Part shown: positions 31,799 to 34,697 of the stretch, in pieces | Layout of the letters: each line of letters starts with the position of its first letter | Position numbering within the stretch: position 1 is the first letter of the stretch | Source: Holophagales bacterium | GTDB taxonomy: Bacteria; Acidobacteriota; Thermoanaerobaculia; Multivoradales; Multivoraceae | Reading direction: 5' to 3' | Length of the DNA: 47,574 nt | Assembly: GCA_009837085.1 (NCBI GenBank) | Contig: VXUF01000093.1 | Span: 1-47,574, forward strand | The notes under the pieces: generated by a model | The model's database searches: none | Seen by the model: only the letters and a program-made list of their open reading frames with translations | What the model was told of the DNA's origin: nothing | Made by a program: the position numbers and the translations under genes

Positions 31799-32650
31799 CT
31801 ACAGGTTCAGCTTCGCCGGCAGGTACCGGTCGATCAGCCCCTGGTAGTAGGGCCGCAGTTCTGCGGCATCCGGCGGACGATCGCTCTTGGAGTACAGGTC
31901 GTAGCCGTTGAAGAGCCGAACCCAGGCGAACATCTCGCGGTCACGGTCGTTCATCAACTCCCGGTACGCGCCTTCGCGGTGACACGCGTAGAAGGAGTGG
32001 TAGCGGATCATGTAGAGGGCCGGTTCCGGCAGGTAGTCGCTGAGCACCTGGTAGAGGTACTCGTCGTGCCCCCACGACAGATGAACCTGGCCCAGGCCGC
32101 AGCCCGGTTCGTACACACCGAGAGGTGTCGAGTAGGTCGGATTCGCCGTGTCCGGGTTGCCCTCGAACAGCTCCGGATAGACGATCCGGTCCGAGAACGC
32201 GCAGCCGACAGGGAAGGTGTCGCCGACCACCGCCCACTGCGGCTCGCCCCACAGGCAGAGCACCTTGCCCAGGTCGTGTACGAGTCCGGCCAGCACGAAC
32301 CAGTCCGGGTGGCCGTCGGCCCGGATCGCCTCGGCCGTTTGCAGCAGGTGGTCGAGCTGGGAGAGGTCCAGGTCCGGGTCCGAGTCGTCCACCAGAGTGT
32401 TCAGGAACTCGAGCGCCTCCCAGGCAGGGAGTTCAGCCCGGTCGAGCGTGAGGTACTCCGCCTTCTTGTCCTGGACGAAGTCCCAGGTCTGGTTCCGGTG
32501 GTTCATCCGGTAGAACTCGCGCACCGTGTCGCGGGGGGGCGCCTCGAAGTCCCGGTAGTCCTCCCGGCGCTTGCCGCCCGATTCGACCGGCGTCGGATAG
32601 AGCTCGGCAACGAAGTCGTCCCAGTCGTCGAGTCGCTCAAGCGGCGCCAT
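31799..32650 (-). CDS. myo-Inositol oxygenase
   Basis: Di-iron oxygenase of 283 residues that splits myo-inositol to D-glucuronate with O2. It is alignable by eye to human MIOX almost end to end. All six metal ligands are present: His in [12 protein letters not shown] in GLVHDLGKV, His in [11 protein letters not shown], His in YHSFYACH, and Asp in [25 protein letters not shown] and [12 protein letters not shown] are also conserved. An ATG 12 codons upstream exists; 32650 is preferred because the family match begins after it. MIOX is common in eukaryotes and sporadic in bacteria. Products would feed the uronate pathway, whose other enzymes are not in the window. Confidence 0.93.
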
Positions 32651-32706
32651 TGTCGATACGCTAGCAGGCCGACGCCCCACCAACATGGGGAGGACCCGAC
32701 CCGAGA

Positions 32707-33302: not shown

Positions 33303-34208
33303 TCACAGAAAGATGCAGGTCGGGCAGTCTCCCGCGGCTGCCGCAAGCGCCCGGTCGGCCTCGCACTGGTACTCCGGGCTGCTCGATCGATGGCTCCGGG
33401 TGTCGCCGTTCAGCATCGCCTCGCGTTTCCAGTCGTCGTCGCGCGACCAGTGGTGCGGCAGCATCTTCACGGCGCCCGGCTGCTCCAGCTCATCCACCGT
33501 CGCGAGCGCGGCGGCGACGATCTCCCGTTGCAGCACCGGGTCCTTCGCCTTCCCCGCCGTGTGACCGAGCGGATAGTCGAGAAACGCGGCGCGCGGAGGA
33601 TTGACCGAGCGCGTGATCGAGAGAGCGGAAGTCAGCGACGTGGTCGGAATCCCGTCCGCCTCGACCCGGCGTGCTATCAGTCCCACGGACTGATGGCAGA
33701 CCGGTCACACGGGGACCAGCAGCGCCAGATCGACCTGGTCCTCCGCGAGACGACGGCTGATCTCCGGGGCCAGCACGTCCCTGACGCGGCGCGCCGAGTA
33801 GATCCCCCCCATGAAGGCGTAGGCGCGTGACGACAGTTCGCCGATCACGCCCTCGGCCGCCAGGGCGTGCAGCGCGTCGAGTGGGAAGACGACGTTCGGG
33901 TCGGTGCGGGCGTCGGTCTGGTCGTAGGCGAAGTGGCTCGTGCGGAGTTCCGACACGGGAACCGATGTATCGATCACACGGAGCGAGCTGTCATCCCGAT
34001 GATGGAAGGCGACCTGGCCCGCCCGGTACACGCCACCGGAGCCCACCAGCCCCACTCGACACTCCCGCAGGGGCTTCACCAGCTCGGTCCACGGCGGCGA
34101 ATCATCGTTGCGCACCCATCGATAGGGATCGTGGCCCAGGCTCGAGTAGAGGTCGCGCGTACGCACGATGTGATCCACCGGCGGTCGTCGTGTCGTCATG
34201 GCGTCCAT
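33303..34208 (-). CDS. GrdB-family selenoprotein (glycine/betaine/sarcosine reductase B-like) with in-frame UGA
   Basis: Read through a TGA at 33705-33707, the frame gives a 301-residue protein with selenocysteine at 168 in LLVPV-U-PVCHQSVGLIARR, a UxxC redox pair. Both halves belong together: before it ECRVGLVGSGGVYR and LAPEISRRLAEDQVDLALL, after it DGIPTTSLTSAL and FLDYPLGHTAGKAKDP, all features of the GrdB-like family found in environmental bacteria. A second pair CPTC ends the protein. Anaerobic GrdB reduces glycine or betaine with partner subunits; none is nearby, so this member is probably an oxidoreductase of unknown substrate. A SECIS-like hairpin follows the UGA. ATG 34208 or 34199 may be the start. 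The msrB gene is divergent, 27 bases away. Confidence 0.82.
33672..33707 (-). promoter_or_regulatory. UGA codon with bacterial SECIS-like hairpin
   Basis: The mRNA can form an 8-bp perfect stem AUCAGUCC-GUG-GGACUGAU (33694-33676) with a 3-base loop starting with G. Beyond a C/A mismatch, UGC pairs with GCA. The loop lies 18 nucleotides after the UGA, inside the usual range for bacterial SECIS elements, which recruit SelB with Sec-tRNA. Confidence 0.7.
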
Positions 34209-34235: not shown

Positions 34236-34697
34236 ATGACCACCGAGGATCGCCGAGTCAGCAGCCGGGTCGACCTCCCCGAATCCGAATGGCGGACAAG
34301 ACTTGGTAGCGACGAGTTCCGGGTTCTGCGGCGGGAGGCAACCGAACGCCCCTTCACCTCGGCGCTCAACCATGAGCACCGGCGCGGCGTCTTCCTCTGC
34401 GCCGGCTGCGGCGCCGCGTTGTTCCGGTCGGATGCGAAGTTCGACAGCGGCACCGGTTGGCCCAGTTTCTTCGAGCCCATCGCCGGGGCCGTCGACACGA
34501 AGCGGGACTTCAAGCTGATCGTTCCCCGAACCGAGTACCACTGCTCCCGTTGCGGCGGACACCAGGGCCACGTCTTCAGCGACGGGCCGGCGCCAACCGG
34601 CCTGCGCTACTGCAACAACGGCGTCGCCCTGCGCTTCCGGCCGGCGCCGGGAAGCGACCCGGAAACTCGACACAACGCCCCAGGCAGGGAGGACTGA
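34236..34697 (+). CDS. msrB: Peptide-methionine (R)-S-oxide reductase
   Basis: Repairs oxidised methionine in proteins. The 153-residue sequence has the two zinc CxxC pairs (C55/C58 in FLCAGCG, C103/C106 in HCSRCGGHQGHVF), FDSGTGWPSF, and catalytic Cys126 in GLRYCNNGVAL, where the usual sequence is RYCIN. The N-terminus shows the family pattern SEWRTRLGSDEFRVLRREAT. It starts 27 bases from the divergent selenoprotein gene and ends four bases before the esterase gene, so it may form a transcript with the latter. No signal peptide, hence cytoplasmic. Confidence 0.93.
   Translation: MTTEDRRVSSRVDLPESEWRTRLGSDEFRVLRREATERPFTSALNHEHRRGVFLCAGCGAALFRSDAKFDSGTGWPSFFEPIAGAVDTKRDFKLIVPRTEYHCSRCGGHQGHVFSDGPAPTGLRYCNNGVALRFRPAPGSDPETRHNAPGRED

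What the first reader, a model, noticed from the sequence alone, without database searches (positions are those of the whole stretch)
33303..34208. UGA-split GrdB-like selenoprotein that automatic calling would break into two genes
An in-frame TGA interrupts a frame whose two halves both match the GrdB-like family, and the codon sits in a UxxC pair (LLVPV-U-PVC). Frame, length and conservation continue directly after it.
Basis: partly seen in the sequence, partly recalled or inferred. Interest (0 to 1): 0.75.

Follow-up and report, generated by a model that had tools for sequence, protein, structure and literature searches.

The report
PrdB/GrdB-like selenoprotein with in-frame UGA
A gene in an uncultured Acidobacteriota genome carries a stop codon that is almost certainly read as the rare amino acid selenocysteine; it belongs to a selenoprotein family already known from ocean metagenomes, so the call is right but the kind of thing is ordinary.

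Summary
On the minus strand (34208 to 33303) one 301-residue frame is interrupted by a single TGA at residue 168 (33705-33707), in LLVPV-U-PVCHQS. Of 64 database relatives, 56 have TGA at exactly this codon and 8 have Cys. Both halves are under purifying selection, and a compact bacterial SECIS-like hairpin follows the TGA. The same genome carries tRNA-Sec(TCA), SelA, SelB and SelD. Selenocysteine insertion is therefore about as secure as sequence alone can make it.

The name needs care. The protein is nearest to PrdB (D-proline reductase selenoprotein) within the GRDB superfamily, but scores far below the PrdB equivalog cut-off. No PrdA was found, though that search lacked a working control. 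It looks like a stand-alone oxidoreductase of unknown substrate. UxxC 'PrdB' selenoproteins are already reported as abundant in Sargasso Sea and GOS metagenomes, so this is a new member of a known kind.

One detail I did not find described: this clade ends in a C-terminal CxxC (here CPTC). It occurs in 61 of 207 distinct relatives, all Sec forms, and in none of 25 Cys forms, including one Sec-to-Cys reversal nested inside the clade. A built-in dithiol that recycles the Sec site is plausible but unproven.

The parts
33303..34208 (-). Gene of a 301-aa PrdB/GrdB-like selenoprotein (stop TGA at 33303-33305 included)
   Evidence: Read-through translation; PrdB model spans residues 37-255 across the TGA with 162 bits; 64 relatives
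33705..33707 (-). In-frame TGA, codon 168, read as selenocysteine; with Cys171 forms the UxxC pair
   Evidence: 56 TGA and 8 Cys codons at this column in relatives
33676..33694 (-). Apical hairpin of the predicted bacterial SECIS element, 8 bp with a GUG loop
   Evidence: Folds; pair counts; synonymous-codon null
33315..33326 (-). C-terminal CxxC (Cys295-Pro-Thr-Cys298) near the end of the protein
   Evidence: Alignments; survey of 207 distinct relatives
34236..34697 (+). Divergent neighbour: methionine-R-sulfoxide reductase (SelR/MsrB domain); neighbour conserved only among the close Acidobacteriota relatives; context only, no functional link shown
   Evidence: Pfam SelR 5.9e-45; gene-neighbour clustering

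Best explanation
The gene encodes a real selenoprotein. SelB with Sec-tRNA decodes UGA168 as selenocysteine, directed by the hairpin just downstream (shown by comparison, not by experiment). Sec168 lies just before the N-terminus of a helix after a central strand and forms a selenenylsulfide/dithiol couple with Cys171 (inferred from UxxC and the model). By analogy with PrdB and GrdB, the selenolate would reductively attack a small substrate; here it appears to work without the PrdA partner, as a stand-alone reductase (inferred). In this clade a C-terminal CxxC tail probably reduces the oxidised Sec-Cys pair, or hands electrons to it from a thioredoxin-like donor (hypothesis). The selenoprotein part is about 0.98 likely, the stand-alone reductase part about 0.6, the tail relay about 0.3.
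For: Column conserved as U or C. Of 207 distinct relatives in several phyla, 164 have TGA and 25 Cys at the column. SECIS-like hairpin: 6.5 of 7 apical pairs in Sec genes against 4.9 in synonymous-codon shuffles, and 5.6 against 4.8 in Cys genes; two pairs with compensatory changes. Sec machinery in the same genome. Purifying selection on both halves. Confident model (pLDDT 93.9, tail block 92) with strand 161-165 then helix 169-184. All 61 CxxC-tailed sequences are Sec forms; the one Sec-to-Cys reversal in the clade, L058/L180, also lost the CxxC.
Against: No protein-level proof of Sec. The substrate is unknown and no operon partner is conserved across clades. Many Sec members have no CxxC tail, and several within the tailed clade lost it while keeping Sec, so the tail is not essential. 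The hairpin's outer stem varies, part of its conservation reflects the conserved HQS-GL codons, and Acidimicrobiia members pair less well.
Confidence: 0.85

Rival explanations
1. The TGA is a genuine stop, a pseudogene lesion or an assembly error, and only the N part is made.
For: TGA is a normal stop in this genome, and the same gene also ends in TGA.
Against: The same TGA occurs in 56 other records, the other stop codons never occur there in those relatives, and the downstream 133 codons are under purifying selection (dN/dS 0.12-0.31).
Confidence: 0.01
2. Two separate genes: the C part is translated on its own from GTG 33686.
For: A GTG lies 7 codons after the TGA, and table 11 gives a 127-aa ORF from it.
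Against: That codon is GTC, GTT or ATC in 23 of 57 Sec genes; the first possible start lies anywhere from 2 to 145 codons downstream. Cys homologues are single uninterrupted proteins. The model packs both parts into one fold.
Confidence: 0.01
3. It is a true PrdB, the subunit of D-proline reductase.
For: Best named match is TIGR04483 over residues 37-255. The literature files the marine UxxC relatives as 'proline reductase PrdB' (PMC1088965, PMC2398784).
Against: 162 bits against a cut-off of 300; no PrdA match in the genome, though the control did not ring anywhere; no conserved operon partner; extra C-terminal tail.
Confidence: 0.07

Closest known systems
PrdB, selenoprotein subunit of D-proline reductase (TIGR04483); metagenomic 'PrdB' selenoproteins (PMC1088965, PMC2398784)
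   Same: Homologous across the core on both sides of the Sec; UxxC motif at the same place; Sec with Cys homologues; single gene of similar size
   Different: Scores 162 against a cut-off of 300; no PrdA found; about 45 extra C-terminal residues ending in CxxC
GrdB, selenoprotein B of glycine/sarcosine/betaine reductases (PF07355, TIGR01918)
   Same: Superfamily homology; UxxC Sec motif
   Different: Matches only the last part of the Pfam model (positions 215-345); 301 aa against a model of about 430; no GrdA match in the genome (that control did not ring either)
Cys homologues of Burkholderiales/Oxalobacteraceae (L076, L078-L082)
   Same: Same core and motif with CPVCHQ
   Different: 34-37% identity, Cys in place of Sec, no C-terminal CxxC

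Membership tests
Bacterial selenoprotein | In-frame UGA aligned with Cys (or UGA) in homologues | tested here: met
   56 TGA, 8 Cys of 64 relatives
Bacterial selenoprotein | SECIS hairpin right after the UGA, small apical loop with G | tested here: met
   8-bp hairpin with GUG loop; enriched over synonymous shuffles; the criterion as stated in PMC1088965
Bacterial selenoprotein | selA, selB, selD and tRNA-Sec in the genome | tested here: met
   SelA 441 bits, SelB 329 bits (362 with its neighbour match), SelD 245 bits, tRNA-Sec 73.5 bits with anticodon TCA
Bacterial selenoprotein | Se physically present in the full-length protein | not testable with these tools
   Needs expression with 75Se or mass spectrometry
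GRDB superfamily (PF07355) | Score above Pfam gathering cut-off 22 | tested here: met
   47.5 bits, profile positions 215-345 only
PrdB equivalog (TIGR04483) | Score above the curated cut-off 300 | tested here: not met
   162 bits, alignment over profile positions 17-235 of 238
D-proline reductase PrdAB | PrdA partner (pyruvoyl subunit) in the genome | tested here: inconclusive
   No match in the genome, but no control genome rang
Glycine/betaine/sarcosine reductase selenoprotein B (TIGR01918) | Score above cut-off 65.45 | tested here: not met
   60.1 bits
Glycine/betaine/sarcosine reductase selenoprotein B (TIGR01918) | Selenoprotein A (GrdA) in the genome | tested here: inconclusive
   No match in the genome, but no control genome rang

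The most novel reading that the evidence does not exclude
A clade of PrdB-like selenoproteins found in several phyla (Acidobacteriota, Binatota, Actinomycetota, Proteobacteria and others) is a self-contained reductase, without PrdA, in which a C-terminal CxxC tail acts as a built-in dithiol relay for the UxxC active site, on a substrate other than D-proline.
Probability: 0.3. Interest if true: 0.45.

Novelty: new member of a known kind. Interest (0 to 1): 0.25.

Why it matters
It confirms a selenoprotein gene that a plain table-11 reading splits in two. It also suggests that 'PrdB' is too narrow a name: this branch of the GRDB superfamily occurs in an organism where no PrdA was seen, has several motif variants, and in one clade carries a C-terminal dithiol found only in Sec forms. 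That makes the enzyme's electron path testable.

Tried and rejected
Solved-structure sequence search gave nothing significant. Fold comparison gave no clear relative: Foldseek had no match at E of 0.001 or better, and the second look's best Z was 8.2 amid unrelated Rossmann-like and periplasmic-binding folds, within background. A conserved operon partner was sought and not found outside close Acidobacteriota relatives; the two clusters shared by other phyla looked, from their sequences, like SDR and enoyl-CoA hydratase genes, large families that are common anyway and were not tested further. I considered that CxxC tail and Sec strictly co-evolve: not so, since many Sec members lack the tail and only one Sec-to-Cys change falls inside the tailed clade.

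Full report
Observation. The finding lies on the minus strand. Translating 34208 to 33303 gives MDAMTTRR...LLVPV-U-PVCHQSVGL...CPTCIFL-stop with one internal TGA at codon 168 (33705-33707). Under table 11 the frame falls into a part ending at the TGA and a 127-aa ORF from GTG 33686. The N part matches PF07355 (3.8e-13) and PrdB TIGR04483 (1.5e-29); the C part matches PrdB only (4.3e-11); the read-through protein matches PrdB over residues 37-255 with 162 bits, more than either part alone.

Is the TGA read? A search of bacterial and archaeal genomes gave 64 relatives from Acidobacteriota, Binatota, Proteobacteria, Actinomycetota and Chloroflexota among others. At the codon aligned with residue 168, 56 have TGA and 8 have TGC or TGT; nothing else occurs. 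One of the search patterns was built on Cys at this place, so the Cys share is if anything favoured. The motif LVP-x-(U/C)-P-x-CHQ is nearly invariant. dN/dS against relatives is 0.10-0.39 before and 0.12-0.31 after the TGA, so the downstream part is a selected coding sequence. The possible restart GTG at V175 is not a start codon in 23 of 57 Sec genes. In wider surveys (297 Acidobacteriota genomes, 297 of the phylum of L058, 369 of the class of L041, 296 of the class of L055), 207 distinct sequences gave TGA 164, Cys 25, Ser 13, Glu 3, Asp 2 at the column. The Ser, Glu and Asp forms belong to more distant branches with other motifs.

SECIS. The 64 nt around the TGA fold at -33.6 kcal/mol, z -2.86, with no shuffle as stable. 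The apical hairpin is AUCAGUCC-GUG-GGACUGAU, its loop 18 nt after the UGA. Across 40 Sec genes it keeps 88.8% standard pairs; sliding the partners by 1 to 3 columns drops this to 16-44%. Two pairs show compensatory change: G-C to A-U, and U-A to C-G. Against synonymous-codon shuffles the Sec genes keep 6.5 of 7 apical pairs (null 4.9), the Cys genes 5.6 (null 4.8). The signal is real but moderate, because the protein sequence here is itself conserved; many Acidimicrobiia versions use a 5-nt loop and pair less well.

Machinery. The window's genome (4.32 Mb, 164 contigs, 96.6% complete) has a tRNA-Sec with anticodon TCA (73.5 bits; ARAGORN agrees), SelB (329 bits, 362 with its neighbour match), SelD (245 bits) and SelA (441 bits). 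Only one PrdB-like gene was found in it.

What it is. The protein is in the GRDB superfamily and closest to PrdB, but scores 162 against the PrdB cut-off of 300, and 60.1 against 65.45 for TIGR01918; all 44 members of the alignment match the same five models, PrdB with the best E-value. PrdA and GrdA searches of the genome found nothing, but neither control rang, so absence is not shown. No gene neighbour is conserved across clades; the divergent MsrB gene is conserved only among close relatives. The AlphaFold model is confident (pLDDT 93.9, pTM 0.93), with Sec168 just after strand 161-165 and at the N-terminus of helix 169-184, a usual place for a redox residue (the inference is mine). No solved relative was found by sequence or fold.

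The C-terminal CxxC. In this clade the protein continues about 45 residues past the PrdB match and ends in CPTC, CEVC, CLTC, CLVC and so on: 54 of 57 Sec genes in the first set, 61 of 207 distinct sequences in the wide set, all Sec; none of 25 Cys forms has it. In a tree of 69 dereplicated rows the tailed sequences fall in one broad group of 44 rows (support 88/79). The only Cys member inside it, L058/L180 of a Desulfobacteraceae genome, nests with starred support among tailed Sec members and has lost the CxxC as well. This is one event, and several Sec members also lost the tail, so it suggests but does not show a functional link.

Known or new. UxxC 'proline reductase PrdB' selenoproteins were the third most abundant family in the Sargasso Sea set (42 sequences; PMC1088965) and had 235 Sec and 110 Cys members in GOS (PMC2398784); a 2026 review lists D-proline reductase (TIGR04483, UxxC) and GrdB (PF07355, UxxC) among verified selenoproteins (PMC13188914). 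I did not compare sequences with the metagenome sets, but motif and family agree. Searches of the held library found no paper on this family in Acidobacteriota or sponge symbionts; that library is partial. Verdict: a correct selenoprotein call, a new member of a known kind, with a modest open question about the tail and the substrate.

Noticed in passing
L158-L163 (G126:C7, G089:C1, G135:C23, G108:C1, G160:C3, G117:C33): Same-genus genomes carry a second, distant paralogue (motif CLCPV-U-PNC[ST]RAV) with about 256 residues after the Sec, in effect a C-terminal extra domain; the window's own genome shows only one copy.
   Followed up: partly
L103 (G219:C91:14941-15624): A relative with two in-frame TGA codons in the active-site motif (U-P-I-U-HQS), possibly a UxxU double selenoprotein.
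   Followed up: no
L128, L131, L138, L141, L144 and similar Acidobacteriota loci: A branch with Ser at the Sec column (LIPA-S-RLCHQ) keeping the second Cys; it may have lost the original redox chemistry.
   Followed up: no
L098 (G099:C172): A Sec relative with about 400 residues after the Sec, a long C-terminal extension or fusion.
   Followed up: no
window 31799-32686, minus strand: Myo-inositol oxygenase (MIOX, Pfam 6.5e-110) in a bacterial genome, near the selenoprotein gene; also present in other close Acidobacteriota loci.
   Followed up: no
L077 and L081: Records titled Klebsiella pneumoniae and Bordetella parapertussis, but the genes group with Binatota-like and Burkholderiales-like relatives; the MAG labels look wrong.
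   Followed up: no
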